Part shown: one piece after another, positions 32,573 to 57,576 of the stretch
How the letters are laid out: each line of letters opens with the position of its first letter
How positions within the stretch are numbered: the stretch's first letter is position 1
NCBI RefSeq assembly: GCF_022808775.1
Contig: NZ_JAKZLA010000003.1
Coordinates: 186,001 to 250,000, forward strand
Length of the DNA: 64,000 nucleotides
Source: Geothrix terrae
GTDB taxonomy: Bacteria > Acidobacteriota > Holophagae > Holophagales > Holophagaceae
Direction of reading: 5' to 3'
Translations under genes and position numbers: made by a program
The notes under the pieces: generated by a model
Told to the model about the DNA's origin: nothing
Database searches by the model: none
Seen by the model: the letters and a program-made list of their open reading frames with translations, nothing else

Positions 32573-33697
32573 ATGAGTGTCTTCGCCGAACTCGACCTTG
32601 AGCCCCGTCCCCTGCTGGGAGCCGCCCTCGCCACCCTGGCCCTCGGCGTGGCCGTGGCCCTGGGCAGCCGGGGCGGGCGCTGGCTGGATCCGGCCCTCCT
32701 GGGCTACCTGCTGGCCACCCTCTTCGCCTGCTTCGGCGTGGCCTACCGCTACGTCTCCTGGATCGAGCGGCCCGCCACGCGGATGTACTTCCGGCACACG
32801 CTCCGGACCCTGCTCTCGCCCCGGGTCTTCAAGGCCCTGCCGAAGATGGTCCTGCTGGCCCTGGACCAGATCCTCCTCCAGCGCTTCATCGAGAAGCGCT
32901 CCATCAAGCGCTGGGGCGCCCACGCCCTCCTGGCCTGGGGCTGCCTGCTGGGCTTCGCCGTGACCATCCCCCTGGTCTTCGGCTGGGTGCGCTTCACCAG
33001 CGAGGGCCTGGACGCCACCCGCTACCAGGCCTGGGTGCTGGGCTTCCCCGCGGGCTCCTTCCCCCTCGACAGCTTCATCGCCTTCTGCAGCTTCCACATC
33101 CTGGATCTGGCGGCGGTCATGGTCATCGCCGGCTGCGTGCTGAGCCTCATCCGCCGCAAGCAGGACGAAGGGGACACCGCCACCCAGCGCTTCGACCTGG
33201 ATCTGCTGCCCCTGGTGCTCCTCATCGCCGTGAGCATGACGGGCCTGATGCTCACCGCCTCGGAGAAGTGGCTCCAGGGCCGCAACTTCGCCACCCTGGC
33301 CTTCCTCCACGAGCTGACGGTCATCCTCCTGCTGCTGGGCCTGCCCTTCGGCAAGCTCTTCCACGTGGTGCAGCGGCCCGCCCAGCTGGGTGTGACGATC
33401 TACAAGGCCGAAGGCGAGGCCGAGGGTCGCCTGGCCTGCAAGGGCTGCGGCACGCCCTTCATCCGGGCCAACCAGCGCCGCGATCTCGGCGAGCTGTGGA
33501 AGGTGCTCGAGCTGGATGGCGCCCGACACAGCGTCCAAGGCGAAGGTGGGGTCCACCACCTGGACCTGTGCCCCAGGTGCAAGCGGCGCCTGGTGGCCAA
33601 GGCCCAGGGCGAGCGCCTGCACGGAGCCTTCGATCCCTTCGCCACCATCCCGGTCCACGCCGAACCCATTCCTGACGCCACCTCGCTGAAGGCTTGA
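32573..33697 (+). CDS. NarI-like membrane subunit with a C-terminal four-Cys domain
   Basis: 374 aa with about five transmembrane helices (15-50, about 122-145, about 165-195, about 210-230, about 245-268) and His residues at helix ends ([29 protein letters not shown]), as in cytochrome b quinol dehydrogenase subunits. The cytosolic tail has CKGC and CPRC pairs about 45 residues apart, a zinc-ribbon or rubredoxin-like site. It is the first gene of the NarB-like/Fe-S/Rieske operon and ends 2 nt before the molybdoenzyme, so it probably anchors it and supplies quinol electrons. Confidence 0.72.
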
Positions 33698-33699
33698 TC

Positions 33700-35960
<2,261 letters not shown>

Positions 35961-35961
<1 letters not shown>

Positions 35962-36542
35962 TGGTGCCCCAGGACTACGGCTTCTTCATCGATCCGCAGC
36001 GCTGCATCGGCTGCCGCTCCTGCGTGGGCGCCTGCGCCGAGTGCGGCACCCACCGCGGCCGCTCCATGATCCACCTGGACGAGATGGACCGCTTCGACAG
36101 CCCCCAGACCGTGCCCACGGTCTGCATGCACTGCGAGGATCCCATCTGCGCCCAGGTGTGCCCCTCGGACGCCATCAAGCGCAGCGAGGACGGCGTGGTG
36201 CACGCGGCGCAGAAGCCCCGCTGCATCGGCTGCCAGAACTGCGAGCTGAGCTGCCCCTTCGGCGTGCCCATCGTCTTCTCAGGCCTGGAGCAGATGCTCA
36301 AGTGCGACCTCTGCTACGACCGCACCTCTGTGGGCCACAAGCCCATGTGCGCCACCGTCTGCCCCAGCCAGGCCCTGCTCTTCGTCCGCAAGGACGAGGT
36401 GGCCAACATGCGCCACAACAAGCCCCTGCGCGACTTCCTCATCGGCAGCGTGCGGGTGAAGACGAAGAACGCCATCATGGTGCCCGATCCGGACACGCCA
36501 CTGCACCTGGACGCGGCTTTGCTCATTGACGGAGGCCTCTGA
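35961..36542 (+). CDS. Four-cluster ferredoxin-like electron transfer subunit
   Basis: 193-aa NrfC/HybA-type protein with four cysteine groups: CIGCRSCVGAC (15-25), CMHCEDPICAQVCP, CIGCQNCELSCP and CDLCYDRTSVGHKPMCATVCP. It would carry electrons from the membrane/Rieske part to the molybdoenzyme. It overlaps both neighbours by one nt (TGATG). No signal peptide, so it works on the cytoplasmic side with the NarB-like subunit. Confidence 0.9.
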
Positions 36543-37102
36543 TGACCTGGTGGCGCCGCGCCTTCCCCCTCGAACTGGCCGAAGAGGGCCACTTCTCCCG
36601 CCGCGAGTTTGCCCGCTTCCTGGCCGTGGTGAGCGCCGGGTTCACCGCCGGCATCGGCTACCTGTGGTGGCGGAAGAAGCCCCTGGAGGGTGCCTCCGAT
36701 CCCGAGACCAAGCAGGCGGAACTGCCCGTGGCCCTGGGCCTAGCCGTGGATCTGCTGCCCGGCCAGAGCCGCCTCTTCAAGTTCCGCGATGCCCACGACG
36801 CCTGCATCCTGCTGCGCACCCCCAAGGGCGAGCTGCGGGCCTACCGGCAGACCTGCACCCACCTGGGCTGCGCCGTCCGCTACGCTGGCGAGCGCCTGGA
36901 GTGCCCCTGCCATCGCGGCTTCTTCGAGCCGGACCGCGGCTTCCCCGTGCAGGGCCCCCCCAGCCGGCCCCTCGCCGCCATCGCCCTGGAAGTCCGCCCT
37001 GACGGCACCCTCTGGGCCGTGGGCGAGCTGCCCAAGCCCACCCTGGAGACTCTGGACCACCGCGCCGCATGCCCCCGCGAGACCTCGGAGGTGACCGCAT
37101 GA
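36542..37102 (+). CDS. Rieske [2Fe-2S] protein, membrane-anchored
   Basis: 186 aa. SRREFARFLAVVSAGFTAGI (19-38) is a twin-arginine-like signal anchor. The Rieske site is CTHLGC (105-110) and CPCHRG (121-126): Cys105, His107, Cys121 and His124 bind the cluster, Cys110 and Cys123 form the disulfide. Such proteins oxidise quinols in bc complexes, so here it suggests a high-potential step between quinol and the molybdoenzyme. TGATG coupling to the Fe-S gene; the membrane peptide gene overlaps its stop. Confidence 0.92.
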   Translation: MTWWRRAFPLELAEEGHFSRREFARFLAVVSAGFTAGIGYLWWRKKPLEGASDPETKQAELPVALGLAVDLLPGQSRLFKFRDAHDACILLRTPKGELRAYRQTCTHLGCAVRYAGERLECPCHRGFFEPDRGFPVQGPPSRPLAAIALEVRPDGTLWAVGELPKPTLETLDHRAACPRETSEVTA

Positions 37103-37314
37103 ACACGCCCCGCGTCCGCATCTCCCCTGCCGCCCTGGGCGTCATCCTCGTGCTGCTGGTGATCCAGCTCTACCTCTTCGAGACCGTGCTGGGCGCCGTC
37201 CTCGACGGCCAGCGCAGCGTCCTCCCCGGTGCCTTCTTCGTCTCCCTGGCCCTCAGCGCCATCAGCCTCTTCCTGGCCTTCCGCAGCACCGTGGAGTACG
37301 GGCCCAAGGAGTAG
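37099..37314 (+). CDS. Small membrane subunit, 71 aa
   Basis: Two hydrophobic helices (LGVILVLLVIQLYLF and AFFVSLALSAISLFLAF) and little else. The ATG overlaps the Rieske stop as ATGA, so it belongs to the complex. I know no named family for it. Confidence 0.75.
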   Translation: MNTPRVRISPAALGVILVLLVIQLYLFETVLGAVLDGQRSVLPGAFFVSLALSAISLFLAFRSTVEYGPKE

Positions 37315-37355
37315 ATACCGGCCAAGGCTCAACAGGCGGGAAGGCAGACAAAAAA

Positions 37356-37460
37356 ACTCCCGCGGAGGGGCGCAGGGAAACCGGAGGATGCCAAGAAGAA
37401 CCCCTTGAATGGGGCGCTTTCTCCGCATCCTCTGTTCCCTCTGCGACCCTCCGCGTGAGT
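37356..37460. repeat. REP-like long palindrome between convergent operons
   Basis: The left arm 37356-37398 and the reverse complement of 37418-37460 share about 40 aligned nt (ACTCCCGCGGAGGGGCGCA against ACTCACGCGGAGGGTCGCA at their starts). It separates the convergent NarB-like and ACIII/nar operons and may act as a bidirectional terminator. A 22-nt part recurs inside narG with 19 matches. Confidence 0.75.
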
Positions 37461-37500
37461 GGTGTCTTCAATCCGGTTCCATCGGATGAACGATGCGGCC

Positions 37501-38643
37501 TTACCCACCCTGGGGCAGCTCCTGGGCCGGGTTGGCGTCCTCCATGAAGACGGGCCAGCAGGCCAGGTGGCCGAGGCCCAGCTGGAGGAGGATGCCGCCC
37601 AGCTCGGCGGGGCCGAAGGCCGGGGGCAGGCCGTGGAGCACCGGCGGCATGATCTGGAGGTAGAGGTCGAGCCAGCGGCCCGTCAGGAGAATGGCGCAGG
37701 TGGCCAGCAACACCGTCTCGCTGGTCTTGGCCTTCCGCCCGAGCAGCAGCACGAAGGGCAGGCCGAAGTTCAGGATCAGGTTCAGGTAGAAGAGGGGTAT
37801 CCAGCGGCCCTGCAGCAGCAGCCGCATGGGGCCCGTCTCCTCGGGCAGGTTGGCGTACCAGATGAGCAGGAACTGGCTGAGGAAGATGTAGGCCCAGAAG
37901 CAGCTGAAGGCGAAGAGCAGCTTGCCCAGGTCGTGGTTCTGGGCCTTCGACACCGCCGGGAGCAGCCCCACGCGCCTCAGCACGATGGCGCTGAAGGTGA
38001 CGATGGCGATGCCCTGGAGGAACATCCCAGAGAAGCCGTAGATGGCCAGGATGGTGCTGGACCACACGGGCTCCAGCGACATCAGCCAGTCGAAGTTGGC
38101 CAGGGAGAAGGTGAGCCCGAAGACGAGGATGAAGGGGGCTGCACCCTTCCCCTGGCGGGTGAGCCGGCGCCCCGTCCAGATCCAGGCCGCGAAGAAGAGC
38201 GCCACCCGGCCGAAGAAGAAGGGCGGGTTCAACCATCCCAGGCGGCCGTGCAGCGCCTCGTGGGAGGCCGCGTCCGGCCGGGCCCAGGGGTAGAGGGTGG
38301 TGGCCCCGAAGGCGAGCAGGAGCATGAGGACCCCCGCCACGGGCAGGAGGGCCGGCATGGCCCGGTGGGCCTTGAGGATGGGATCGCTCCAGCGGGCCCC
38401 GGTGATGGACTGGATGGCCAGCAGGAAGAGCCCTCCCAGGCCCACGCAGGCCAGGTTGAAGGCCGTGAGCAGCAGGTTGCCCCAGCCCCGCTCCGCCTGG
38501 AGCGCGAGGCCCAGGCCCAGCAGCCCGGCGCCGAGCAGCACGAAGGCCCAGGCGCCGCCCCGCAGGCGCTCGCCGATGTCGGCCAGAGTGGGGATGCCGG
38601 ACTTGGTGAGGTCCCGGGCGGGAACGGTGAAGGTCTCGCTCAT
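37501..38643 (-). CDS. actF: Alternative complex III, quinone-binding membrane subunit ActF
   Basis: 380-aa NrfD-like membrane protein with about ten helices, the smaller of the two quinone-binding integral subunits of alternative complex III (menaquinol:cytochrome c/HiPIP oxidoreductase). Typical segments: LQAERGWGNLLLTAFNLACVGLGG and WSSTILAIYGFSGMFLQGIAI (partial). Last gene of the nar-act unit; its ATG overlaps the actDE stop (ATGA). Confidence 0.87.
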   Translation of the reverse strand: MSETFTVPARDLTKSGIPTLADIGERLRGGAWAFVLLGAGLLGLGLALQAERGWGNLLLTAFNLACVGLGGLFLLAIQSITGARWSDPILKAHRAMPALLPVAGVLMLLLAFGATTLYPWARPDAASHEALHGRLGWLNPPFFFGRVALFFAAWIWTGRRLTRQGKGAAPFILVFGLTFSLANFDWLMSLEPVWSSTILAIYGFSGMFLQGIAIVTFSAIVLRRVGLLPAVSKAQNHDLGKLLFAFSCFWAYIFLSQFLLIWYANLPEETGPMRLLLQGRWIPLFYLNLILNFGLPFVLLLGRKAKTSETVLLATCAILLTGRWLDLYLQIMPPVLHGLPPAFGPAELGGILLQLGLGHLACWPVFMEDANPAQELPQGG

Positions 38644-39824
38644 GGCTGGGCTCCCGTGGCTTGGGCGGGCACAGCGGCCGGCTTCGCGGCCTTCTGCAGC
38701 TCCCGGATGTAGAGCACCACCTGCCAGCGGTCCTCGCGGCTGAGGAGGTCGCCGTAGCCCTTCATCTTCATGGGGCCGCCGAAGGTGGCAACGTGGAAGA
38801 TGCGTCCGTCCGGCATGTCCCGCACCACGGGAGAGACGAGCACCGTGGGCGCGAAAGCCCCCCGCGCGACGATCACGCTGCCGTTGTTGTCGCCTTCCCG
38901 GCCGTGGCAGGTGGCACAGACCCGCTCGAAGACGAGCTTGCCGCGGTTGAAGCGGGCCTGGGTGGGCTGGTAGGGGTTCTGCAGTTCGCGGCCGGCGCGC
39001 TCCGCCTCGGCCTTGCCCGGCCCGAAGGCCAGGGGCGGCTCGCCGCGGCGCGACAGGGTGTCCGGGGGCGGCGCCTGCAGCACCTTCCTGCCGGGCAGCA
39101 CGCCGCTGGCGTCGAAGGCCTGGGCCGAGAAGGGCGCGCCCATCCCGCCGTCCCAGGCCAGGTTCCGGCGCTGGAAGTCCCGGTTGAGCAGGGGCACCAG
39201 GAGCAGGAGGAGGAGGGCCGGGAGGCAGGCCACCAGCAGGGCGCCGACGCCTGCGGGGCGATCCCAGAAGGAGCCGCTGTGCTGGAAGCGATCCTCCACC
39301 AGCAGGCCGGATTCAACGGCGCCCAGGCCCGCCAGCTCGCGGGCCACGACGGGGAACTGGATATCGGCGGCCAGCTCCGCCGCGAGGATGAAGCGGTTGT
39401 CGTTGGCGCCGGGATGGAGGTCGGGGATGCGGAGGCGGGGGCGCATGCGCGCGACGAGGAAGAAGCTGGCCACCACGCCCAGACCCGCCAACAGCACCGT
39501 CAGCTCGAAGGCCACGGGGATGAAGGCGGGGATGGCCAGGAGGGGCTTGCCGCCCATGATCAGGGGATAGTCGACGGCGGAGGTCCAGATCTGGAGGCCC
39601 GCGGCGAGGGCGAGGCCCAGGGCGGCGAAGGCCAGGCAGGCGCGGGGCAGCCGCGAGGGGCGCAGGCCCATGGCCTCGTCCATGCCATGCACCGGGAAGG
39701 GCGTGTAGGTGTCCAGCACGCGATGTCCGGCGGATCGCAGATGGTTCACCGCGCGGAGGAGCTGCTCCGGGTCCGCGAAGGAGGCCCGGAAGCGGCTGCG
39801 ATGGAGATGCTCAGTGCTCGACAT
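38640..39824 (-). CDS. actDE: Fused ActD-ActE: DUF3341 membrane domain plus monoheme cytochrome c
   Basis: 394 aa. Residues 1-175 are the ActD (DUF3341) domain with two helices ([39 protein letters not shown]). A further helix about 213-237 leads to an ActE-like cytochrome c domain with [11 protein letters not shown] (haem, about 306) and the axial Met in [11 protein letters not shown]. In well-studied alternative complex III these are two proteins; here one chain keeps both in fixed ratio. It overlaps actC by 14 nt and actF by 4 nt. Confidence 0.85.
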
Positions 39825-41211
39825 TCTTCAGCACTCCTTTCACTTCGCTCGCCGCGATCATGGGCAGCACCCGGGTGAACACCAGGAACAGCGTGAAGAA
39901 GAGGCCGAAGCTGCCGATGAGGATGGCCACCTCGATGAAGGTGGGCCGGTACGTGGCCCAGCTGGAGGGCAGGTAGTCGCGGTGGAGGCTCGTCACGATG
40001 ATGACGAAACGCTCGAACCACATGCCGATGTTCACGAAGATGGTGAGGATGAAGATCATCCAGGGGGTGGTTCGCACCTTCTTGAACCAGAAGAACTGGG
40101 GCGAGAGCACGTTGCAGCCCACCATGGTCCAGTAGGCCCACTGGTAGGGGCCCAGGGCGCGGTTGAGGAAGACGTAGCGCTCGTAGGGGTTCCCGCTGTA
40201 CCAGGCCGTGAAGAACTCCGTGGCGTAGGCCATGCCCACGATCATCCCCGTGGCCAGCACCACCTTGGTCATGGCCTCCAGGTGGCGGGTGGTGATGTAC
40301 TCCTCCAGGCCCATCACCGAGCGGGCGATGATCATGAGGGTGAGCACCATGGCGAAGCCGCTGAACACGGCGCCCGCCACAAAGTAGGGCGGGAAGATCG
40401 TCGCGTGCCAGCCGGGAATCACGGAGGTGGCGAAGTCCATGGACACGATGGTGTGCACGGAGACCACCAGGGGCGTGCTGAGGCCCGCCAGCAGCATGTA
40501 GACCGTCTCGTAGCGGCTCCAGGTGCGGTTCGAGCCGTTCCAGCCCAGTGAGAAGATGTTGAGGATCGTGCGCTTCAGCTTCGTCTTCGCGCGGTCCCGC
40601 TGGGTGGCCAGGTCTGGGATGAGGCCGATGTACCAGAAGGTGAGCGAGATGATGAAGTAGGTGGAGATGGCGACGACGTCCCAGAGCAGCGGGCTCTTGA
40701 AGTTCACCCAGAGGGAGCCGCGGGTGTTGGGGTAGGGCGTGGCCCAGAAGGCCAGCCAGGGCCGGCCCATGTGGATGATGGGAAAGGTGCCCGCGCACAT
40801 GACGGCGAAGAGGGTCATGGCCTCGGCGGCCCGGTTGATGGAGGTGCGCCAGCGCTGGCGGAAGAGGAAGAGAATGGCCGAGATCAGTGTCCCCGCGTGG
40901 CCGATGCCCACCCAGAACACGAAGTTCGTGATGTCGAAGGCCCAGCCCACCGTGCGGTTGAGGCCCCAGGTGCCGATGCCCCGGGTGAGGGTCTGGAAGA
41001 CCGCCCAGGCGCCCAGGGAGAGCATCGAGAGGGTGACGGCCAGGACCAGCCACCAGCGCAGGGGCGGGCGACGCTCCGTGGGCGCGAAGACCTCCTCCGT
41101 GACCTGACGGTAGGTCTTGTTCCCGTCGATGAGGGGCAGGTTGTGGCCATAACGCTCGGCCTCGGCGGCCGGGATCCCGTTGGCGGTCAGCACGTCGGCA
41201 TCATGCGCCAT
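39811..41211 (-). CDS. actC: Alternative complex III, NrfD-like membrane subunit ActC
   Basis: 466-aa polytopic protein of the NrfD/PsrC superfamily with about ten helices ([52 protein letters not shown]). It is the main quinone-binding subunit and docks ActB. Overlaps actB by 11 nt and actDE by 14 nt, so tightly coupled translation. Confidence 0.92.
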
Positions 41212-44113
41212 GGTGGCCTCCCTGGTTCGTCTCTGGCGTGATGTTTCGTATCTTGGTCAGGTAGCTCACGGCGGGGCCGATGCCCAGCTCGCCCAGCACC
41301 AGGAAGCGCTTGGGATCGCGGAGAACCTGGCTGATGCGGCTGTCCGGATCCTGCATGTCGCCAAAGACGATGGCCTGGGCGGGGCAGCTCTGCATGCAGG
41401 CAGGCAGCGCTTCGCCGTCCTTCAGCTCGCGGCCCTCGTTCTTCGCCGTGATCTTGGCTTCCATGAGGCGCTGCACGCAGAAGGAGCACTTCTCCATGAC
41501 GCCCCGGCTGCGCACGGTGACATCCGGGTTGAAGCCCAGGCGCTCCAGCTCGCTGGCGTGGGGATACTCCCACCAGTTGAAGCGGCGCACCTTGTAGGGG
41601 CAGTTGTTGGCGCAGTAGCGGGTGCCCACGCAGCGGTTGTAGACCTGCTGGTTGAGGCCCTCCTCGCTGTGCACCGTGGCCAGCACGGGGCACACGTTCT
41701 CGCAGGGGGCCTGGTCGCACTGCTGGCACAGCATGGGCTGGTGCACGACGCCGGGCTCGGCCTCGGAGCCGGTGTAGTAGCGGTCGATGCGCAGCCAGTG
41801 CATCTCGCGCTTGCGCCGCACCTCGTCCCGTCCCACCACGGGGATGTTGTTCTCCACCTGGCAGCCCACCACGCAGCCGGAGCAGCCCGTGCAGGCGCTG
41901 AGGTCGATGACCATGGCCCAGCGGTGCGCGCCATGGGGATGCTCGCCGTAGACGGAAGGCCCCGGCTGCTCGTGGGGGCGGGCCGACGCGGGGTCGCGCA
42001 GGTAGGGCGCCAGGGCCATCTCCCGCACCAGCTCGCGGCCCTCCAGGCTGTGGTGGTCCTGAGTGCAGGCCAGGTCCACGCGACCCTGGCCCCGCCGCAC
42101 CTGGAGGGGTACGGCCTCGGCGGCCAGGAAGCCTGACGCGAAGGTTCGCCAGGGATAGGCGTTCTTTCCCACACCCAGGCCCGACTTGCCGCCCGCCGTG
42201 CGGCCATAGCCCAGGGCCACGGCCATGGTGCGGTCGTCCTGGCCCGGCTGCACGACGACGGGCAGCTCCAGCTCCAGGGCATGGCCCTCGGGCCGCAGGC
42301 GCAGCAGGTCGCCCTGCTCCAGGCCAAGCTTTGCCGCCGCAGCGGGCGATACCTGGGCGTAGTTGTCCCAGGTGGCCTTGGTGATGGGATCCGGCAGCTC
42401 CTGCAGGAAGGGGAGGTGGGCGTGGCGCCCGTCCCCCAGGCCCACCTTGGCGTAGAGCAGCAGCTCGTAGCCCTCCTTGCGCGCGGCCCGCGGCGCGCCT
42501 TCCACGCGGCCCTCGCGGTACCGGGGCGCGGGCCCGGATTCCACCTGCGCGGCGCCCTTCTGCAGCGCCTCGTTCCAGAACGTCTCGAAGTCCCCCACCG
42601 CCTTCTGACGGGAGAACACGGCCGCCTTCCAGTGCTCGCGCAGGGCCTGGAGCGCCGGCACCGGCCGTCCGGCCCAGGCACCGAAGCTCTCCACGGCATC
42701 ACGCGTGGCGAAGAGGGGCTGGAGGAGCGGCTGGGCCAGGGAGACGGCGCCCGCCACGGGCTCCGCGTCCCGCCAGGCCTCCAGCCAGTGGTGGTCCGGG
42801 GCCAGGTGGGTGCAGGCGGCGGCGCTCTCGTCCTCGGTCAGGGCCAGGGACACCCGCAGAGGCACCTTGGCGAAGGCGCTGGTGAAGGCCGCGGGCTGCT
42901 CGTAGACGGGGTTGCAGCCCAGCAGCACCAGGGCGGCGACCTTGCCTCCGGCCATCTCGCGGACCAGGGCCTCCAGGGTGCGGTCATCCCCCCGCTTCTG
43001 GAGGCTGGGGCGGGCCAGATCCACGGTGGTGCCTTCGTGGCCGAGGGCATGGTTGATCCGGGCGACGAGCTCCTGGGCCCGCGGATCATTTAGGCCGCAG
43101 AGCAGGAGGCCGTGGCCCCGGTGCGCCTCCAGCTCGTGGGCGATGCCCCGCGCCTTCGCCGCCAGGGCCGTCGGGAGGGCTCCTCCCTCCACGGCAAGGC
43201 CCAGGTGCCGGGCCAGGGCCTCCAGGAAAGGCACGGCCTCGGACGGCGCGAGGCGCACCCGCTCGTCGGCGTTGCTGCCTGTGAGCGAGAGGCCGCTCTC
43301 CACCTGAATGTGCTTCGACATGGGCCGGGGCTTGTCGGGCCCGCGGCGCTCGGCATAGGCGCGGGTGAAGCCCACGGGATCGATCCAAGTGCCGAGGAAG
43401 TCCGCCTCCAGGCCCACGAGGAGGTCCGCCTCCTCCAGGCGGTAGTGCGGGATCATCCGCTGACCGTGGGTGCGCTCGTAGGCGGCGGCCAGGGCCGCAG
43501 CGCTGAGGGTGTCCGCCTCCACCAGGCGGCCGTCCTTGAAGGTTCCGAGGAAGCCCTGCGCGGCGGCGCGCAGGGTGGGACTGAGGATCGTGCCCGCCAG
43601 CACCCGGACGGCACCACCGGAGGCCCTCAGATCGGCGAAGCGCCGCTGGAGATCCGCGTCCAGCACGGTCCAGTCCACGGCCTTCCCGGCCAGCTTCGGG
43701 CCGCGCAGGCGGTCCTCATCGTAGAGGCCCCGGGTCTGGGCCTGGCCGATGGCGCAGAGGCCGCCGCGGCTCACGGGATGATCGGGATTCCCCTCCAGCT
43801 TCACGGGGCGGCCGTCGCGGCTGCGGGCCAGCACGCCGCAGCCCGCGGCGCAGCCGCCGCAGGTGGTGGCGTACCACTGGGCCACGCCGGGAGTCAGCCC
43901 CTCCCGGGCGTTGAGGTAGGGCATGGCCTTCTCGACCACCTTGCTCTTGCAGCCCAGGGCCAGGCCCGCCGCGAAGCCCAGGCCGGAGAAGCGGAAGAAG
44001 TCGCGCCGGCTGATCTGCCGGACGCTCTCGCCCACGGGCAGCTCCTCCTCGAACTCCGCTTTCCGCGACCGGACCATCCCGCGCCGTTCCCCGAGGCTCT
44101 TCCAGGTCTTCAT
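41201..44113 (-). CDS. actB: Alternative complex III, ActB (molybdopterin-like plus Fe-S domains)
   Basis: 970 aa. N-terminal twin-arginine signal [21 protein letters not shown] (listed only to Gly54) with a possible lipid-anchor Cys55. The ActB1 part (about 80-700) is a molybdopterin-oxidoreductase fold with one cluster motif (CGGCAAGC); known ActB has no molybdenum. The ActB2 part (about 720-950) is NrfC-like with [37 protein letters not shown] and CSFC motifs. Periplasmic electron relay from quinol to ActA/E haems. Confidence 0.93.
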
Positions 44114-44122
44114 GGGATCTCC

Positions 44123-44701
44123 TCAGTGATGGCAGGCCGAGCAGTCCGTCGGCGCCTGGGCGGGCTTTCCGGCAAGCTGCTGCTTCTGGTTCTCAAGGCG
44201 GTGGCAGGCGAGGCACTCGCCCATGGTCAGGGCCATGGCCTGCTCCACGCGCTCCATGCCCTGCACCTCGCCGTGGCAGGACTGGCAGGCCACACCGGCG
44301 CGGACATGGCGGCTGTGGGGGAAGGTGACGTGGGCGGGCAGGCGGTGGATGCGGATCCACGCGAAGCCCCGGCCGCTGGCGTAGGCGTCCCGCAGCTTCT
44401 GGATCTCCGGGCTGGGGTCCGACTTGCCCATGGGCGTGCCGGCCCGGTCCAGCACGGTCTCGTGGCACTTCATGCAGGTGCTGAGGGGCGGGATGCCCGC
44501 GTGGCGGCTGTTCTCCGCCGAGGTGTGGCAGAAGAGGCAGTCCATCTTCAGCTCACCGGCGTGGAGGGCATGCGAATAGGGGATGGGCTGGGCGGGCTTG
44601 TAGCCGCTCTGGTCCCCGAGCAGGCGCGTGTCCAGGCTCAGGGCGAAGATCATGAGCGAGGCGCCGAAGGCCACCGCGCCCGTGATGGCGACGGTCCGCA
44701 T
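44123..44701 (-). CDS. actA: Alternative complex III, pentaheme cytochrome ActA
   Basis: 192 aa from the ATG giving MRTVAITGAVAFG, two nt after the narI stop; a GTG two codons earlier would overlap narI. One N-terminal signal anchor, then CLFCH, CMKCH, CQSCH, CLACH and a C-terminal CSACHH, five haems as in ActA. It stands first in the act genes but without its own promoter space: narI runs straight into it. Confidence 0.9.
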   Translation of the reverse strand: MRTVAITGAVAFGASLMIFALSLDTRLLGDQSGYKPAQPIPYSHALHAGELKMDCLFCHTSAENSRHAGIPPLSTCMKCHETVLDRAGTPMGKSDPSPEIQKLRDAYASGRGFAWIRIHRLPAHVTFPHSRHVRAGVACQSCHGEVQGMERVEQAMALTMGECLACHRLENQKQQLAGKPAQAPTDCSACHH

Positions 44702-44703
44702 CC

Positions 44704-45378
44704 TCACCGGAGCCCCTTCCGGTTCCAGATCACCACCTGAGGCCTGCGCCAGTAGTAGAAGATGGGCACCACCAGGAAGTGGACGAGCCGCGTGAAGGGC
44801 AGCAGGAGGATGACCAGGAAGCCGCTCAGGAAGTGGAGCTTCACCATCCAGGGCAGGGGCGCGATGAGCTCGGGCCGGGGCGCGAGCTTGAGGAGGCTCC
44901 AGAGGTAGGGCGCTGCGTTGGTGGAGAACCAGGCGCTGCCCCAGCGGTAGCGGATGGCCACGTCGATGCCGCTGGCCACCTGGTAGAGCAGCACGGCCAG
45001 CAGCACGACATCCAGGGGGCTGGTCACCACCTTCACCCGCCGGTCCGTGAAGCGGCGGACGATGAGGGCCACCACGCCCACCAGGGCCAGCAGCGCCATG
45101 GAGAGCCCGGTGATCTCCAGCAGGTAGAGCCGAAGGGGGCGGGCGTTCCAAGCCAGGATGGCCTCGGGCAGGAAGAAGGCGAAGAGGTGCCCTGACAGCA
45201 CCCAGAGGATGCCCCAGTGCCAGAGGCTGGAACCCCAGAAGAGGGACTCGGTCTCCAGGAACTGGCTGGAGAGGCTGGAATAGCTGAAGGGCCGCCAGGT
45301 GAAGCGCAGGATGCTCACCACGATGGCCAGCACCAGGGCCACGTAGGGGAAGCCCACGAAGAGGAAGTTAGTCAGCAC
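44704..45378 (-). CDS. narI: Respiratory nitrate reductase gamma subunit (cytochrome b)
   Basis: 224 aa, five helices. His54, His64, His182 and His200 correspond in spacing to the four haem b ligands of E. coli NarI (56, 66, 187, 205). It oxidises menaquinol and passes electrons to NarH. The start is GTG, inside the narJ 3' end (11-nt overlap), so translation is coupled. Confidence 0.95.
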   Translation of the reverse strand: MLTNFLFVGFPYVALVLAIVVSILRFTWRPFSYSSLSSQFLETESLFWGSSLWHWGILWVLSGHLFAFFLPEAILAWNARPLRLYLLEITGLSMALLALVGVVALIVRRFTDRRVKVVTSPLDVVLLAVLLYQVASGIDVAIRYRWGSAWFSTNAAPYLWSLLKLAPRPELIAPLPWMVKLHFLSGFLVILLLPFTRLVHFLVVPIFYYWRRPQVVIWNRKGLR

Positions 45379-45901
45379 AGGACGCCTCCGCCGGTTTGCG
45401 ATTGACCGTGAAGATGAGGAAGAGGGCCTGGAGCACGTGGTGGTAGGGGCTCTCCCTGAGGGCCGGAATCACCTTCTCCAGGGCCGGCAGGAGGCAGTCG
45501 TCCACCAGGTCCATGGCGTCCTGGCGCTCCAGCCGCATGCCCAGATCCAGCAGGTTCGGCAGGTGGTCCGGCAGGTTCCCCCCCTCCTCGAGGCCGTGGG
45601 CCTGCAGGTGGTAGCGAATCATGGCCATGAACTGGCCCCGCTGGTAGGTCTCGCCGAAGAGGTGCCAGCCGATGTCCAGCGTGCACTCCGGGGTGAGGTC
45701 GAAAGCCCGGGTGTAGAGCTCCTGGAGCTCGCGCAGATCCAGGCCCCGCGCCACCAGGGCGAAGGCCTCCAGGTGCTCCTGGCAGGGGTGGCCCGTGGCC
45801 ATGGCCGCGTCCGCCAGGGAGCCCGCGAGGGTTTGGGTGCGTTCGTCGGGATAGCGCAGCAGCGCGGCGATGCCGGGAATGATGTGAGTCGGAATGCGCA
45901 T
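45368..45901 (-). CDS. narJ: Nitrate reductase assembly chaperone NarJ
   Basis: 177-aa TorD/DmsD-family chaperone for cofactor insertion into NarG (LLRYPDERTQTLAGSL, LYTRAFDLTPECTLDIGWHLFGE). The start ATG is 2 nt after the narH stop. Overlaps narI by 11 nt. Confidence 0.93.
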   Translation of the reverse strand: MRIPTHIIPGIAALLRYPDERTQTLAGSLADAAMATGHPCQEHLEAFALVARGLDLRELQELYTRAFDLTPECTLDIGWHLFGETYQRGQFMAMIRYHLQAHGLEEGGNLPDHLPNLLDLGMRLERQDAMDLVDDCLLPALEKVIPALRESPYHHVLQALFLIFTVNRKPAEASCAD

Positions 45902-45903
45902 GA

Positions 45904-47400
<1,497 letters not shown>

Positions 47401-47410
47401 GACGGTCCTC

Positions 47411-50400
47411 CTACCAGACCAGCTGGCCGAGCTTGCGGACGTAGACCACCGTTTCGCGGTTCACGCCGGTGGGTCCCCAGTAGTTGAAGTGGTAGGTGAA
47501 CTGCCCGTAGCCGCCCACCATGAGGTTCGGCTTGAGGCGCGCGCGGGTGAGGCTGTTGTTCATGCCGGCCCGCTTCATGCCCCGCAGGGGGGACTTGGGC
47601 ACGCTGTAGGTGCGCTCCGTGGCGTGGTACTGGATGCAGGCGCCGCGCGGGATGCGGGCGCTGACGCAGCAGCGCACCACCACCACGCCGTTGTCGTTGT
47701 GGATCTCCACCCAGTCGTTGTCCTTGAGGCCGATGGAGGCCGCATCCTCCTCGCTGAGCCAGAGGGGATCCTGGCCCCGCGACAGGGTGGTCATGCGCTC
47801 GGTGTCGCCGTAGGTGGAGTGGATGTGCCACTTCCCATGGGGCGTGAGGAAGTTCAGGGCCAGGGTGTTCCCCTCGCGCTTGGAACAGCGCAGGTCGCCG
47901 AGCACCTGGGCCGGCGGCGTGGGCTTGTAGGTGGGCAGGTGCTCGCCGAAGGCCAGGTAGCCCTCGTGGTCCAGGTAGCAGTGCTGGCGGCCCGTGAGCG
48001 TGCGCCAGGGCACCATGCGCTCCACGTTGTAGGTGAAGGCGGAGTAGGGGCGCTTGTCATCCACCAGGCCGGACCAGCAGGGGCTGTTGATGACGCGGCG
48101 GGGCTGGGACAGCAGGTCCTTGAAGGTGCGCCGAACGCCCCGGTAGGGCTCGGCCAGGTCCTTCAGGGGCAGGCCGGTGCGGCCCTCCATGAACTGGTAG
48201 GCGCGGTAGGCCAGCTCGCCATTGGTCTCCGGTGCCAGATGCAGCAGCGCATTGGCCGCGTGGAGGTCCTCCTCCAGGCTAGGCCGCTTCTGGCCGCCGA
48301 CCTCCACGGTGGGGTGGGTCTCCAGCATGCGGTCGTAGATGTCTTCGATGGGGTACTTCACGCCGTGGGCGCCCAGGCCCTGCTCGCGCACCAGGGGGCC
48401 CAGCGAGATGAACTTCTCGTGGACCGTCTTGTAGTCCCGCGTGACCACCTTCAGGCCGGGCATGGTCTTGCCGGGGATGGCCTCGCACTCGCCGGCCATC
48501 CAGTCGCGGATGTGGGGTTGGGCGATCTCCGCGGGGCTGTCGTGGGTGAGGGGCGAGGAGACGAGGTCCTCGATGGGATCCGGAAGGTGCTTGGCGGCCA
48601 GCTCGCTCACCCGCTTGGCCATGTCCTTGAAGATGTCCCAGTCGCTCTTGGATTCCCAGCAGGGCGGCACGGCCGCGGACAGCGGGTTGATGAAGCTGTG
48701 CATGTCCGTGGAGTTGAGGTCGGTCTTCTCGTACCAGGTGGCCGTGGGCAGCACGAGGTCGCTGTAGAGGGCCGAGGTGTCCATGCGGAAGTTGATGTCG
48801 ATGACCAGGTCCATCTTCCCGGTCACGGTGGGCCGCCAGGTCACGTCCTTGAGGGTGCCTTCCGCCACTTCCTCGGCGATGGCATTGCTGTGGGTGCCGA
48901 GGTAGTGCTTGAGGAAGAACTCGTGGCCCTTGGCGCTGGTGCCAATGGCATTGCCGCGCCAGATGAACCACACGCGGGGCCAGTTCTCCTGGGCATCGGG
49001 GTCCTCCACGGAGAATCGGAGATCCTTCTTCTTGAGGCGCTCCACGGTGCTGGCGATGATGGCGGCCTCGTCCCGGGCGCCGGCCTTGCGCGCGTCGGCC
49101 ACCACGGCCATGGGATTCTCGTTGTACTGCGGGTAGAAGGGCAGCCAGCCGCTGCGCACGGCGCGGGTCTGCATGTTCATGCAGTGGCCTTCCACCAATG
49201 AACTGCCGTCGGGCACGGTGTTGTAGGCCTTGAACTCCCGCTCGTAGCGCCACTGGTCCGAGTTGACGTAGTGCCAGCTGGGTCCGTTCTGCAGGCGGTT
49301 CACGGGCACCCAGTCCCGGGCCATGGCGATGGCGGACCAGGAGGCCACGGGCGCCAGCTTCTCCTGGCCCACGTAGTGGGCGAGACCGCCGCCGTTGGTG
49401 CCGATGCAGCCGCAGAAGACCAGGGCATGCTGGGCGGCGCGGTAGATGAGGTTGTTGTGGTACCAGTGGTTGATGCCCGCGCCGATGATGACCGTGCACT
49501 TGCCCCGGGTGAGCTCCGCGGTGCGGGCCCACTCGCGGGCGAAGCGCAGCACGTTCTCCCGCGACAGGCCCGTGATGCGCTCCTGCCAAGCGGGCGTATA
49601 GACGGCGGCCTCGTCGTTGTAATCCTTGGGATAGGCCCCGCCCAGGCCGCGCTCCACGCCGAACTGGGCCATGAGCAGATCGTAGACCGTGGTGACGGTG
49701 GCCTCGGTGCCGTCCGCCAGCTTCACGCGCCGCACGGGCACGCCGCGCAGGCAGATGCTCCCGCCCGCGAAGTCATCGAATTCGACCAATGCCACTGCGG
49801 TGGGACCGCCCGGTCGCTGCGCTCCCTCTGCGTCCCCCCGCGCCCCCGCGCCTTGGTCGGCGGAGCCGCCCGCAGCACCAAGAAACGTCAACGCCGGCGT
49901 GATGGGGCTGTCGTCCTGGCCGTCCTGCAGCAGCAAGTTCCACTGGCCCTGCTTGGTGCCCCAGCGGTGGCCCACGGAGCCCTTGGGCATCTTCGGCGCG
50001 CCGCTGCCCTCGTCCCACATGAGGAACTTCCACTCGCCGTGCTCTTCCTCCGCGTACTTCGAGAGGCGTCCCGCGCGCAGCAGCTGGCCGGGTCGGAACC
50101 CACCCTCGGCTTCCACCAGCTCGACCAGGAACGGCCCGTCCGTGTAGGTCTTCTGGTAGTCCAGGAAGAAGGGCACCTGCTTCTGATGGTGGAACTCCGT
50201 GAGGATCACATGGTTCACCGCCATCCAGAAGGCGCCGTCCTGGCCCTGGTGGACGGGCATCCACTCGTCCGCGTACTTGGCCACCTGGTTGAAGTCGGGG
50301 CTGAAAACCACCATCTTCGTGCCGTTGTGGCGGCTCTCGGCGGCGAAGTGGCAGTCGGGCGTGCGGGTCATGTTCAGGTTCGAGCCCATGACCGCCAGGA

Positions 50401-51112
50401 ACTTGGCGTTGTACCAGTCCGCGCTCTCCTGCACGTCCGTCTGCTCGCCCCACATCTCGGGGCTGCTGGGCGGCAGGTCGCAGTACCAGTCGTAGAAGCT
50501 GAGGTTGGTGCCGCCCATGAGCTGGATGAACCGCGAGCCCGCGGCGTAGCTCAACATGGACATGGCGGGGATGGGGCTGAAGCCCGCGATGCGGTCGGGC
50601 CCGTGGGTCTTGATGGTGTGGATGTTGGCGGCGGCGATGAGCTCGCCCACCTGGTCCCAGGAGGCCCGGCGGAAGCCGCCCTTGCCCCGGGCGCGCTGGT
50701 AGCGCGAGCGCTTGTCGGGGTCGTTCTGGATGCTGGCCCAGGCTGCCACGGGATCCTGGTGCCTGCCCTTGGCCTCCTCCCAGAGGTCCATGAGGGCGCC
50801 CCTCATGTAGGGGAACTTCACCCGCAGGGGACTGTAGAGGTACCAGCTGAAGCTGATGCCGCGCTGACAGCCGCGCGGTTCGTAGGGCGGCACCTTCTCG
50901 TCGAGCAGGGGATAGTCGACGACCTGCATCTCCCAGGTGACGATGCCCTCCTTCACGTAGATGTTCCAGCCGCAGCTCCCCGTGCAGTTCACGCCGTGGG
51001 TGCTGCGCACGACCTTGTCGTGGGCCCAGCGGTTCCGGTAGAACTCCTCCCAGGAGCGGGTCTCGGGATCGACGATGTCGGTGATCCAGTGGCTCTGCTT
51101 GCGCTCGGTCAT
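47411..51112 (-). CDS. narG: Respiratory nitrate reductase alpha subunit, with an in-frame repeat insertion
   Basis: 1233 aa from the ATG giving [15 protein letters not shown], with AAGGA before it; the frame is open further upstream through the intercistronic hairpins, which is not credible coding. FS0 cluster site [11 protein letters not shown]; Mo-ligand Asp in [10 protein letters not shown] (about 207). No Tat signal, so the active site faces the cytoplasm. At about residues 400-437 a low-complexity Gly/Ala-rich stretch ([19 protein letters not shown]) is encoded by a sequence related to the palindrome at 37356. Confidence 0.96.
49821..49842 (-). repeat. REP-like fragment inside narG
   Basis: This 22-nt plus-strand stretch (TCCCTCTGCG, then CCCCCCGCG) matches the right arm of the palindrome at 37434-37455 at 19 of 22 positions. 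It lies in the middle of the Gly/Ala-rich insert of NarG, whose borders are roughly 49790-49915. The insert keeps frame. Confidence 0.6.
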
Positions 51113-51227
51113 GTTTCGTCCTTCTGGCATCGGGGGCGCAGAAGCCAGGCTGTGCCTGGGTTCTGCGCGGGGGGTTCCGGGGGGGACATCGCGAGCGGAG
51201 CGAGCAGGCGGTCCCCCCCGGATCATG
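51113..51227 (-). promoter_or_regulatory. Two intercistronic hairpins between the diheme cytochrome and narG
   Basis: GCGCAGAA-GCCAGGC/GCCTGGG-TTCTGCGC (51136-51168) and an 11-bp stem CCGGGGGGGAC/GTCCCCCCCGG (51177-51221) fill the only sizeable gap of the unit. They lack T-tracts and may be a processing or partial-termination site setting the ratio of cytochrome to NarG. Confidence 0.6.
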
Positions 51228-52049
51228 TCAACAGCGGGGTTTCAGGTTTTTGCGAAGGCCCCGGAAGCGCCGGCGGCCCAACCGGCCGGCCAGCAGCATG
51301 CCGGAGACGAGGCCCACGACGCCCAGGACAGGGAAGGCCATGTCCGTGGGGGCCGGGGGCTGGGCGGCCAGGCTCTTGATGAAGCTGCCCACCTGGAAGG
51401 CCTCCTCCGCCGTGAGGGGCGTCTTCTGGAACACGCCCTGCATGGTGGGGAAGGCGGGGTTCTCGATGGCCGACACCAAGCCGACGCCCAGCTTCCCGGA
51501 GGCCCCCGTGAGGTCGGGGCCCAGGCGCCCGCCCCCGAAGCCGCCCAGGCCCTGGGCGCTGTGGCAGGACATGCAGGCGGGCGCCCCGGAGGCGAATCGG
51601 GTGAAGCCCATGAAGAGCTGCTGGCCCCGGCGGATGTCCGCAGGGGTGGCGGCCCGGGCGATGGCCGCGGTGCCGAGGGTCTTCCCCGCCGCGGTGTAGT
51701 CGTCGATGAGCTTGACGAGGGCCTGGGCCTCGGCGGCGGTGACACCCAGGTCCGGCATGCGGGTGCCGTTGAACTCCCGGAGGAGCGCGGCGGCCGTGGG
51801 GTCGCCCCCATCCAGCTGAGCGGAGGGCATCTGGATGAACTTGGTGGACCACTCATGGGGCCGGCGCTGGCCCAGTCCCTTGAGGTCGGGGCCCACCTTC
51901 CGGCCCGCGCCGATGGTGTGGCAGCTCATGCAGCTCTTGCGGAACTGGGCCTCGGCGTCCTGAGCGGCCAGGGCTGGAGCCAACATCGGGGCCAGGGCCG
52001 CGAGGACGGCCCAGGCGAGCACCTGTCGTGGCGTGATCCTGGGGAACAC
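51228..52049 (-). CDS. narC: Membrane-anchored diheme cytochrome c heading the nar operon
   Basis: 273 aa from a GTG with GGAGG just upstream. Signal peptide ([21 protein letters not shown]), two cytochrome c domains with CMSCHTIG (about 40) and CMSCHSAQ (about 160), and a C-terminal helix [19 protein letters not shown] with basic tail. In Thermus the nar operon also begins with a c-type cytochrome gene (narC), hence the tentative symbol; sequence kinship to it is not shown. It faces the periplasm, so it can take electrons from alternative complex III or from NarI's outer haem. Confidence 0.8.
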
Positions 52050-52387
52050 AACACCTCCTCGGGGGAGCGGCCGGCAAGGGCACGGCACTTTTAGGAATGA
52101 TTGTTCTGAAATTCGGCCAAGTATGACTCCGCCTTCCCGGCCCGCGCAAGGGGGGTCACATCAGAAATAGGTGAATTTTTTGTTTTTATTAATTTATTTA
52201 TTATCAATATTTAATAATACATATCCACATCTGTCGCTATCTTGAGACTCCATCTTCCCCAAGAACGCGGACCAGGGGCATCCTCGGTCGGGGCGATCTC
52301 AAAATCGCAAAATTCAGGCATGGCGCCTTTTCACAGGCGTTTTATATTCAGACTACTAATTCCTTTTAACTCTCCCCCGGAAGGTCC
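52050..52387. other. 338-nt divergent promoter region between the nar-act unit and rrf2
   Basis: Contains a strongly AT-rich segment (about 52165-52225, with TTTTTTGTTTTTATTAATTT), unlike anything nearby. TTTTAGGAATGATT at 52089-52102 lies near the nar-act start, and CTAATTCC at about 52365 near the rrf2 start, possible Rrf2 operators. No perfect Crp/Fnr palindrome is seen; GGGGTCACATCAG (about 52152) is a half site. Confidence 0.5.
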
Positions 52388-52873
52388 ATGAACCATCCCC
52401 AGCCCGGCTGTCCCCACCCGCGCAGCCTCTTCCACGCCCCCACGCGCTACGCGCTGCAGGCCCTCGTGCGGATGCCCGGGGATGGGACCTACCGGCTGGC
52501 CCGGAATCTGGCCACGGAGCTGGGCCTGCCCGGCCCCTTCCTGGCCAAGATCCTCCAGGCCCTCTGCCACGCGGGCCTCCTCGAATCCCTCCGGGGTCCC
52601 ACGGGGGGCTTCCGCCTGACCCGCGCCCCAGAGCACATCACCCTGCGGGAGGTGGTGCTGGCCATGGAGGGGCCGGAGCCCTTCGAGGACTGCCTGCTGG
52701 GCCACGCGGCGGTGGGCGAGGACTGCCACTGCCCCATCCGCCCCGCCTGGGACGTCCTCCAGACGCTTCTCACCCGGGTTCTGGCCCAGACCTCCCTCCG
52801 CGATCTCCAGGCGGCCCGGTCCGCGCCGGTCCAGCCGGAGGATCCGGATCTCTCGGTGGCCGCCCCCGTATAG
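52388..52873 (+). CDS. Rrf2-family regulator with rearranged cysteine motif
   Basis: 161 aa, Rrf2 winged helix (HAPTRYALQALVRM; PGPFLAKILQALCHAGLL; RGPTGGFRL). The cluster loop has Cys102, then Cys113 and Cys115; compared with the three paralogues in this window (spacing C-x6-C-x5-C) the middle Cys is Val and an extra Cys appears two residues before the last. Divergent from the nar-act unit and upstream of narK genes, so it is the obvious local regulator. Confidence 0.88.
   Translation: MNHPQPGCPHPRSLFHAPTRYALQALVRMPGDGTYRLARNLATELGLPGPFLAKILQALCHAGLLESLRGPTGGFRLTRAPEHITLREVVLAMEGPEPFEDCLLGHAAVGEDCHCPIRPAWDVLQTLLTRVLAQTSLRDLQAARSAPVQPEDPDLSVAAPV

Positions 52874-56430: not shown

Positions 56431-57576
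<1,146 letters not shown>

What the first reader, a model, noticed from the sequence alone, without database searches (positions are those of the whole stretch)
37501..52049. Nitrate reductase and complete alternative complex III in a single 14.5-kb transcription unit
Seen: diheme cytochrome, narG, narH, narJ, narI, actA, actB, actC, actDE, actF follow on one strand with gaps of 2-10 nt or overlaps, except 115 nt before narG. Known: act genes usually sit with aerobic oxidase genes; NarGHI normally takes electrons from quinol alone. Inferred: menaquinol oxidised by ACIII feeds the membrane diheme cytochrome (and perhaps NarI or later denitrification enzymes), so nitrate respiration would gain a bc1-like step.
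Basis: partly seen in the sequence, partly recalled or inferred. Interest (0 to 1): 0.78.

Follow-up and report, generated by a model that had tools for sequence, protein, structure and literature searches.

The report
Nitrate reductase with dedicated complex III
A Geothrix soil bacterium encodes its nitrate-breathing enzyme together with a second, distinct copy of a respiratory complex (alternative complex III) as one ten-gene unit, and the same unit recurs across its phylum and in a few others, which suggests that this complex, usually tied to oxygen breathing, was recruited for nitrate.

Summary
Ten genes on the minus strand, 52049 to 37501, encode diheme NarC, NarGHJI and a complete alternative complex III (ACIII), with the stated spacing. 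It is not an accident of one genome. In the order, 15 of 77 genomes hold NarG and in all 15 nar and act are contiguous; elsewhere in the phylum 20 of 31 NarG-bearing genomes have them together (2 not, 9 undecided). The genome's other ACIII sits beside a cytochrome oxidase, the usual place.

Two features mark the nitrate-linked version. Its ActB keeps a four-cysteine Fe-S motif (40 of 41 loci) that oxidase-linked Acidobacteriota ActBs lack (0 of 20), though 16 of 64 other ActBs have it. Its NarC has a first heme domain that resembles ACIII electron-shuttle domains; Thermus NarC and two act-less Acidobacteriota NarCs have another, while the second, NarI-side domain is common to all. NO-forming nitrite reductases are rare (NirS 1 of 46, NirK 2 of 46).

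I infer that ACIII passes menaquinol electrons to NarC and so to NarI/NarG, beside direct quinol oxidation by NarI. The route is not shown. Nar-act adjacency is in print for Planctomycetota/KSB1 MAGs (PMC10732223), read there as a possible nitrite reductase.

The parts
52120..52149 (-). promoter-like site TTGCGC-18 nt-CATACT upstream of narC
   Evidence: conserved in 9 of 9 aligned cytC-rrf2 intergenic regions; likeness to a sigma-70 promoter is by eye, the consensus scan did not list it
51228..52049 (-). narC: periplasmic diheme cytochrome c, signal peptide, C-terminal membrane helix
   Evidence: two CxxCH; Pfam Cytochrom_C; hydropathy; AlphaFold pLDDT 86, pTM 0.67; 31% identity to the cytochrome before narG in Thermus thermophilus JL-18
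51113..51227 (-). 115-nt palindromic insert between narC and narG
   Evidence: here and in L017, 84 nt in L014, 10-26 nt in 10 of 12 other loci
47411..51112 (-). narG, catalytic subunit, no Tat signal (cytoplasmic side)
   Evidence: TIGR01580 1493.7 bits; N-terminus
49787..49876 (-). about 25 extra in-frame codons in narG, only in this genome among 15 compared (limits approximate)
   Evidence: alignment
45904..47400 (-). narH, Fe-S subunit
   Evidence: TIGR01660 643.5 bits
45368..45901 (-). narJ, chaperone
   Evidence: Pfam PF02613; below the TIGR00684 cut-off
44704..45378 (-). narI, diheme b membrane subunit
   Evidence: TIGR00351 120.7 bits; four heme His, Arg at the E. coli K86 position
44123..44701 (-). 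actA, pentaheme cytochrome c
   Evidence: 5 CxxCH; 6f0k_A E 5.9e-35
41201..44113 (-). actB, fused molybdopterin-like and Fe-S subunit
   Evidence: 6lod_B E 9.5e-199
43754..43861 (-). CxxCxxxC-x27-C (FS0-type) motif in ActB domain B1
   Evidence: 40 of 41 nar-linked loci (44 of 45 rows, 4 loci held twice), 0 of 20 oxidase-linked Acidobacteriota, 16 of 64 others; cysteines absent in the solved ACIII chains aligned
39811..41211 (-). actC, NrfD-type quinol-binding membrane subunit
   Evidence: 6btm_C E 2.3e-191; residues equivalent to R. marinus His139, Asp169, Ser245 conserved in the printed alignment
38640..39824 (-). actDE, fused membrane subunit and monoheme cytochrome c
   Evidence: PF11821 plus cytochrome c; 6f0k_D and 6f0k_E, Glu122 of ActD conserved
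37501..38643 (-). actF, second NrfD-like membrane subunit
   Evidence: 6f0k_F E 3.4e-39, Tyr284 conserved
37347..37464 (-). terminator-like hairpin with T-run after actF
   Evidence: z -7.9; limits approximate
52388..52873 (+). divergent Rrf2-family regulator
   Evidence: TIGR00738 88.4 bits; a homologue near 21 of 41 nar-act loci, some cut by contig ends
52975..56052 (+). two NarK-like transporters
   Evidence: TIGR00886 181 and 289 bits, both under the 311.7 cut-off

Best explanation
This is a nitrate-respiration module: a Thermus-type four-subunit nitrate reductase (NarC-GHI) encoded and inherited together with its own ACIII. Proposed working: ACIII oxidises menaquinol at ActC on the periplasmic side; electrons run through FeS1 and the ActA/ActE hemes to NarC heme domain 1, cross to NarC heme domain 2, then to the NarI b hemes, NarH and NarG, which reduces nitrate in the cytoplasm. 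NarI can also oxidise menaquinol directly, so ACIII adds a second, possibly proton-pumping entry. Shown here by sequence: identity of all parts, one gene unit, joint inheritance, a NarC domain that goes with ACIII. Inferred: co-transcription, NarC as adaptor, direction of electron flow. Unproven: proton pumping by ACIII.
For: Nar and act contiguous in 15 of 15 NarG-bearing genomes of the order and on one contig and strand in 20 of 31 elsewhere in the phylum, 2 not, 9 undecided. NarGH and ActB trees share 15 of 28 splits (at most 2 in 200 label shuffles); distance correlation 0.855 (at most 0.238 in 999 permutations), 31 loci; one shared split holds Bacteroidota, Ignavibacteriota and Planctomycetota loci with Acidobacteriota. 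Nar-linked ActBs held as one clade are not rejected (p-AU 0.663). FS0 cysteines in 40 of 41 nar-linked loci against 0 of 20 oxidase-linked Acidobacteriota ActBs. NarC domain 2 is common to the Nar types tested (Thermus 103 bits, act-less L121/L123 74 and 73), but domain 1 of the nar-act type is found in held-out act-linked loci (96-98 bits) and L131 (107), against 8 in Thermus and about 30, heme motif only, in L121/L123. Domain 1 matches the extra c domain of F. johnsoniae ActA (6btm_A) and R. marinus cytochrome c (3cp5): window NarC alone E 3e-6 and 2.3e-4, family profile 7.5e-18 and 3.2e-13, 3cp5 first by Foldseek, E 3.1e-4. The F. johnsoniae domain is described as a mobile shuttle to the oxidase (PMC8552683, passages). 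NirS 1 of 46, NirK 2 of 46. Precedents: Thermus NarC binds NarI in two-hybrid tests (PMC7694296, passages); S. coelicolor Nar1 needs and co-purifies with complex III (PMC7931247, abstract and introduction).
Against: No expression or biochemical data. NarI retains heme ligands and a basic residue at the quinol site, so it may not need NarC as donor. The best PDB match of NarC domain 1 is a SCO1/SenC-fused cytochrome (2l4d), not an ACIII part. The free ActB trees did not recover the nar-linked rows as one clade (5 label changes, at least 3 forced by well-supported branches), and tree congruence would also follow from separate vertical descent. FS0 cysteines occur in 16 of 64 other ActBs, so they do not mark nitrate by themselves. 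L131 keeps the domain-1 type after losing adjacent act. The NirS search had silent controls, though it did ring in one searched genome. Cytochrome c to NarI is probably uphill in midpoint potential (recalled values), downhill only overall.
Confidence: 0.55

Rival explanations
1. Parallel branches: NarGHI takes menaquinol directly; the ACIII is co-expressed only because both serve oxygen-limited growth, and it feeds other periplasmic acceptors (cbb3 or caa3 oxidases at low oxygen, NrfA-type nitrite reduction, other cytochromes).
For: NarI quinol site apparently intact. Three genomes with only the nar-linked ActD still have COX1-family genes: G057 one of the ~500-aa kind I take to be cbb3, G055 such a one plus a 783-aa one I take to be qNor, G053 three, one of them at 409 bits. 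NrfA in 53 of 77 genomes of the order and in 13 of the 15 with nar. ActE may serve several acceptors (PMC8552683 passages).
Against: In the order ActD is either beside narG (15) or, where it could be seen, near COX1 (46 of 53, 7 unresolved). NrfA and cbb3-like genes also occur in genomes without nar-act, and NrfA is missing in 2 of the 15 with it. It does not explain NarC domain 1.
Confidence: 0.3
2. Reverse mode: NarGHI-NarC works as a nitrite oxidoreductase and ACIII, run backwards, reduces quinone with cytochrome c electrons.
For: Nitrobacter has a similar nar-type cluster used as NXR with a periplasmic NarC homologue (PMC7694296 passages); a Nitrobacter hamburgensis plasmid carries an ActB homologue, 37% identity.
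Against: NarK-like transporters next door; the 15 MAGs with narGHI in PMC8100337 are read there as nitrate reducers (passages); Geothrix is known as an anaerobe using nitrate and Fe(III) (recalled).
Confidence: 0.07
3. The act-like genes are a novel NrfAH-like nitrite reductase, as proposed for the same arrangement in Planctomycetota/KSB1 MAGs.
For: Position downstream of nar (PMC10732223, section 10 read).
Against: Every subunit matches solved ACIII chains, ActC at E 2.3e-191; an NrfA match lies elsewhere in this genome.
Confidence: 0.03
4. Chance or assembly neighbourhood without functional meaning.
For: None beyond lack of experiments.
Against: Conservation over the order and phylum and in three other phyla.
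Confidence: 0.01

Closest known systems
Thermus thermophilus narCGHJIKT operon (NarC-containing nitrate reductase)
   Same: Gene order narC-G-H-J-I, NarG 62%, NarH 60%, NarI 48%, NarJ 37%, NarC 31% identity; NarC domain 2 shared
   Different: No act genes among the 32 annotated features of the 27.6 kb fetched; NarC domain 1 of another cytochrome c type
[quoted passage not shown]
   Same: All six subunits; domain-B2 Fe-S cysteines, 5-heme ActA, and the ActC, ActD and ActF residues named in PMC5928083 (His139, Asp169, Ser245; Glu122; Tyr284) conserved in the printed alignments
   Different: Nitrate reductase instead of oxidase as genetic partner; FS0 cysteine motif in ActB domain B1, where the R. 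marinus structure has no cofactor
Nar upstream of an NrfD-type complex in Planctomycetota and KSB1 MAGs (PMC10732223, 2023)
   Same: Apparently the same arrangement: nar, 5-heme cytochrome, Fe-S/Mo protein, NrfD, ActD, cytochrome, ActF-like; L042 is a Planctomycetota example found here
   Different: Read there as a possible NrfAH-like nitrite reductase or chain component; not identified as ACIII as a whole; Acidobacteriota not mentioned in the passages and section read
Streptomyces coelicolor Nar1 with the bcc-aa3 supercomplex (PMC7931247)
   Same: Membrane NarGHI depending on complex III; QcrC, like NarC, is a membrane-anchored diheme cytochrome (profile match E 2.9e-9)
   Different: bcc complex with Q cycle, not ACIII

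Membership tests
NarGHI respiratory nitrate reductase | NarG, NarH, NarI over curated model cut-offs | tested here: met
NarGHI respiratory nitrate reductase | NarI with four b-heme histidines | tested here: met
   31 of 31 sequences compared with E. coli, act-less ones and L092 included
NarGHI respiratory nitrate reductase | catalytic side in the cytoplasm (no Tat signal on NarG) | tested here: met
   N-terminus read by eye, no twin-arginine signal
Thermus-type NarC nitrate reductase | diheme membrane cytochrome c gene directly before narG, homologous to NarC | tested here: met
   31% identity, E 8e-19; domain 2 103 bits
Thermus-type NarC nitrate reductase | same first heme domain | tested here: not met
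   Thermus 7.7 bits against the act-linked domain-1 profile
Alternative complex III | complete ActA-F set homologous to solved subunits | tested here: met
Alternative complex III | ActA pentaheme and ActB Fe-S cysteines of domain B2 | tested here: met
   5 CxxCH; domain-B2 cysteines conserved
Alternative complex III | menaquinol oxidation and cytochrome c reduction | not testable with these tools
   needs enzyme assay
Oxidase-linked (canonical) ACIII cluster | adjacent cytochrome oxidase genes | tested here: not met
   the genome's three COX1-family hits lie on C7, C11 and C1, none on C8; the other act copy has COX1 3.4 kb on
NrfAH-like nitrite reductase | NrfA homology | tested here: not met
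   act proteins hit ACIII, not NrfA; the genome's NrfA-family match lies at C7:412582

The most novel reading that the evidence does not exclude
Nitrate-linked ACIII is a functionally distinct, branched quinol oxidase: its Fe-S wire (FeS1-4), which ends inside ActB in the solved enzymes, continues to a fifth cluster (FS0) in domain B1 and gives a second electron exit, while the heme wire hands electrons to the adaptor NarC and on to NarI. The two exits would split menaquinol electrons between two acceptors during nitrate respiration.
Probability: 0.12. Interest if true: 0.87.

Novelty: new variant of a known kind. Interest (0 to 1): 0.68.

Why it matters
ActB has been stated to serve aerobic respiration exclusively (PMC10100899, passages), and NarGHI is normally taken to draw on quinol only. 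A nitrate-linked ACIII lineage spread over a large soil phylum would change the energy budget assigned to nitrate respiration there, give ACIII an anaerobic role in cultivated Geothrix species, and make the open question of the second ACIII electron wire testable. It also offers another reading of a gene cluster that was published as a possible nitrite reductase.

Tried and rejected
Rejected: the unit as a NrfAH-like enzyme (ACIII homology complete); denitrification enzymes as main ACIII acceptor (NirS/NirK rare); loss of the NarI quinol site as a sign of dependence on ACIII. Arg at the K86 position is found in 27 of 27 nar-act NarIs sampled, in act-less L131, in L092 and in Thermus; the two other act-less NarIs have Ile and Val, the opposite of what that idea predicts.

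Led nowhere: NosZ search (PF18764) found nothing in 77 genomes but all controls were silent, so it says nothing. NarC on plasmids matched SCO-family or unnamed proteins over about 30% of its length. The repeat search in the window gave only imperfect, chance-like families. The predicted NarC structure shows two helical domains and a C-terminal helix but no good whole-chain match.

The 20 phylum loci were chosen: 17 because they looked adjacent, 3 as act-less copies; they show gene order, not frequency. G116 and G277 carry a second narG copy not followed by ActD within 20 kb; only the G277 one (L123) was fetched. Trees dropped near-duplicates and truncated rows. Of the 20 second-copy act loci fetched (20 of 47), L137, L141 and L148 (cox1 39-41% identical) gave no ActB match and are missing from the ActB comparison; L147 and L153 had no cox1 match. 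Oxidase linkage was not checked for the 64 'other' ActBs. The profile includes three act-less NarCs. The COX1 list is capped.
Full report
What is there. The window is 64 kb of a 3.43-Mb genome (G000:C8). Its genus is Geothrix: G012, listed as same genus, has the contig of G. oryzisoli SG189, and named relatives with 85-94% identical ActB are G. oryzisoli SG189, G. campi SG10 and G. limicola Red804. On the minus strand, 52049 down to 37501, lie narC (diheme cytochrome c), narG, narH, narJ, narI, actA, actB, actC, a fused actDE and actF, with gaps 115, 10, 2, -11, 2, 9, -11, -14, -4 nt. ActA-F all match solved ACIII chains. The 115-nt gap before narG is a palindromic insert; 10 of 12 other measurable loci of the order have 10-26 nt there. 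A promoter-like pair before narC is conserved in 9 of 9 aligned regions; the consensus scan found no terminator-like site on the coding strand within the unit, and its one promoter-like hit, at chance level, also lies before narC; a strong hairpin with a T-run follows actF. An Rrf2-family regulator is divergent from narC; a homologue lies near 21 of 41 nar-act loci.

It is a conserved unit. In the order, 15 of 77 genomes hold NarG (14 over the cut-off; G029 and G072 cut by contig ends); in 15 of 15 nar and act are contiguous in the same order (in G029 the narG-narH junction falls between contigs, but narJ-narI-actABC(DE)F are contiguous). Of 396 genomes drawn from the phylum, 42 have a NarG match at E <= 1e-120, 31 of them outside the order. 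In 20 of the 31 ActD follows NarG on the same strand at 7.6-11.3 kb; in 2 (G320, G236) it does not although there is room; 9 are undecided (7 with narG under 9.5 kb from the contig end, 2 whose contig length I did not look up; one of the 9, G141, shows no ActD at all). Seventeen of the adjacent loci were fetched and all 17 carry narC-narGHJI-(narK)-act; three act-less copies fetched for contrast (L121, L123, L131) carry narC-narGHJI alone. A named-genome scan also found the unit in records titled Bacteroidota (L038, L046), Ignavibacteriae (L039) and Planctomycetota (L042). NarGH and ActB trees share 15 of 28 splits and their distances correlate at 0.855, far above shuffles. Separate vertical descent would also give agreement, but one shared split groups the loci from the three other phyla with Acidobacteriota, so the two complexes have apparently moved together as well. 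L131 lies inside the nar-act clade and has lost the adjacent act genes.

The ACIII is a second, distinct copy. The genome has another complete act set with ActD at C7:593934, 3.4 kb before a COX1 gene at C7:597860. In the order, 15 of 68 ActD matches are nar-linked; 46 of the other 53 lie within 8 kb of a COX1 hit and 7 are unresolved. Of 47 second-copy ActDs in the other NarG-bearing genomes I fetched 20; 18 have cox1 nearby. Nar-linked ActBs lie apart from the oxidase-linked Acidobacteriota copies. The free quick trees did not join all nar-linked rows (5 label changes), but holding them, with three rows from short contigs, as one clade raised the likelihood and is not rejected (p-AU 0.663). 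Their ActB keeps CxxCxxxC-x-C in domain B1 in 40 of 41 loci (44 of 45 rows; L119 has three of the four cysteines), against 0 of 20 oxidase-linked Acidobacteriota and 16 of 64 other ActBs. The solved ACIIIs aligned here lack these cysteines, and the R. marinus paper reports no prosthetic group in B1 and says that FeS2-4 may serve further electron transfer (PMC5928083, passages). That the motif binds a cluster is inference.

NarC looks like an adaptor. The nitrate reductase is of the Thermus type: T. thermophilus JL-18 has narC-G-H-J-I with 31, 62, 60, 37 and 48% identity, and no act genes among the 32 features annotated in the 27.6 kb read. NarC domain 2 is common to all tested (Thermus 103 bits; act-less L121 and L123 74 and 73). 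Domain 1 differs: a profile from 23 act-linked NarCs gives 96-98 bits to held-out act-linked L125, L130, L132 and 107 to L131, but 7.7 to Thermus and about 30, heme motif only, to L121 and L123. In PDB searches window NarC matches, by domain 1, 2l4d (a SCO1/SenC-fused cytochrome, E 9e-13), the extra c domain of F. johnsoniae ActA (3e-6) and R. marinus cytochrome c (2e-4). A family profile, which includes the three act-less NarCs, gives 6e-21, 7.5e-18 and 3e-13, and by domain 2 and helix actinobacterial QcrC at about 3e-9. Foldseek ranks R. marinus cytochrome c first (E 3.1e-4; only two matches at E <= 0.001). Thermus NarC instead matches nitrite-reductase-fused and Thermus cytochromes c (E 3e-14, 4e-13), with R. 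marinus cytochrome c at 0.019 and the F. johnsoniae chain not among the 60 of 89 rows shown. The F. johnsoniae domain is described as a mobile shuttle from ACIII to the oxidase (PMC8552683, passages).

Acceptors. NirS is found in 1 of 46 NarG-bearing genomes (controls silent) and NirK over cut-off in 2 of 46, under it in 3 more. Published Acidobacteriota MAGs likewise had narGHI in 15 and nrfAH in 23, but no nirK, nirS or norBC, and nosZ in 4 (PMC8100337, passages). NrfA is in 53 of 77 genomes of the order and 13 of the 15 with nar. The NosZ search was uninformative. So the usual cytochrome-c-fed nitrite reductases of denitrification are mostly missing, and Nar itself, oxidases or NrfA remain as likely acceptors.

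Mechanism. Best reading: menaquinol, ACIII, NarC domain 1, NarC domain 2, NarI hemes, NarH, NarG, nitrate. NarI keeps its four heme ligands and Arg at the E. coli Lys86 position in 27 of 27 nar-act NarIs sampled, so direct quinol oxidation probably persists. ACIII has no Q cycle (recalled), so rerouting pays only if ACIII pumps protons, which its structure suggests but which lacked experimental support in 2018 (PMC6303296, passages). Precedent for complex III supporting a membrane Nar: S. coelicolor Nar1 (PMC7931247, abstract and introduction). An oddity in line with a NarI-ACIII partnership: L092 has narI 110 nt before act with no narGHJ match within the 22.9 kb held.

Print. Nar upstream of this six-gene cluster was reported in 13 instances in Planctomycetota/KSB1 MAGs and read as a possible NrfAH-like nitrite reductase or respiratory chain part (PMC10732223, section 10 read). 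ActB has been stated to serve aerobic respiration exclusively (PMC10100899, passages), while act clusters away from oxidases have been noted in MBNT15 (PMC9386147, passages). My searches (open-access library only, up to 25 listed each) showed, among titles, abstract starts and the papers opened, none describing the unit in Acidobacteriota; subscription reviews on ACIII were not available.

Noticed in passing
window 32573-37314 (+): A second molybdoenzyme cluster, convergent with act: weakly QmoC-like protein, NasC/Fdh-like MopB protein, Fe-S protein, Rieske protein, DUF6755. It lies beside nar-act in seven other Geothrix loci; function unknown.
   Followed up: partly
L092 (CP070717.1) 8508-9194 and onward: narI directly upstream of an act cluster of the nar-linked type, with no narGHJ match in the 22.9 kb held: a possible NarI-ACIII complex without nitrate reductase.
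   Followed up: partly
window about 49787-49876: About 25 extra in-frame codons in narG, found in this genome only among 15 compared.
   Followed up: partly
window 51113-51227; L014, L017, L020, L022, L024 intergenic regions: Inserts of roughly 70-280 nt, many able to form long hairpins and of several kinds, sit at different gene junctions of the nar-act unit in different genomes of the order.
   Followed up: partly
window 14223-16799 and 17291-19993 (-): Two MtrC/MtrF-like outer-membrane multiheme cytochromes.
   Followed up: no
window 56431-57576 (-): SLAC1-type anion channel next to the NarK-like genes; might move nitrate or nitrite.
   Followed up: no
window 57700-60091 (-) and 60155-61279 (+): LuxR-type response regulator with HAMP/HisKA_3 kinase, and moeA, beyond the NarK-like genes.
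   Followed up: no
L016 about 1611-2960 (G055:C113:11111-12460): A COX1-family gene of 783 aa, qNor-like by size, about 1 kb downstream of actF on the same strand in one genome of the family.
   Followed up: no
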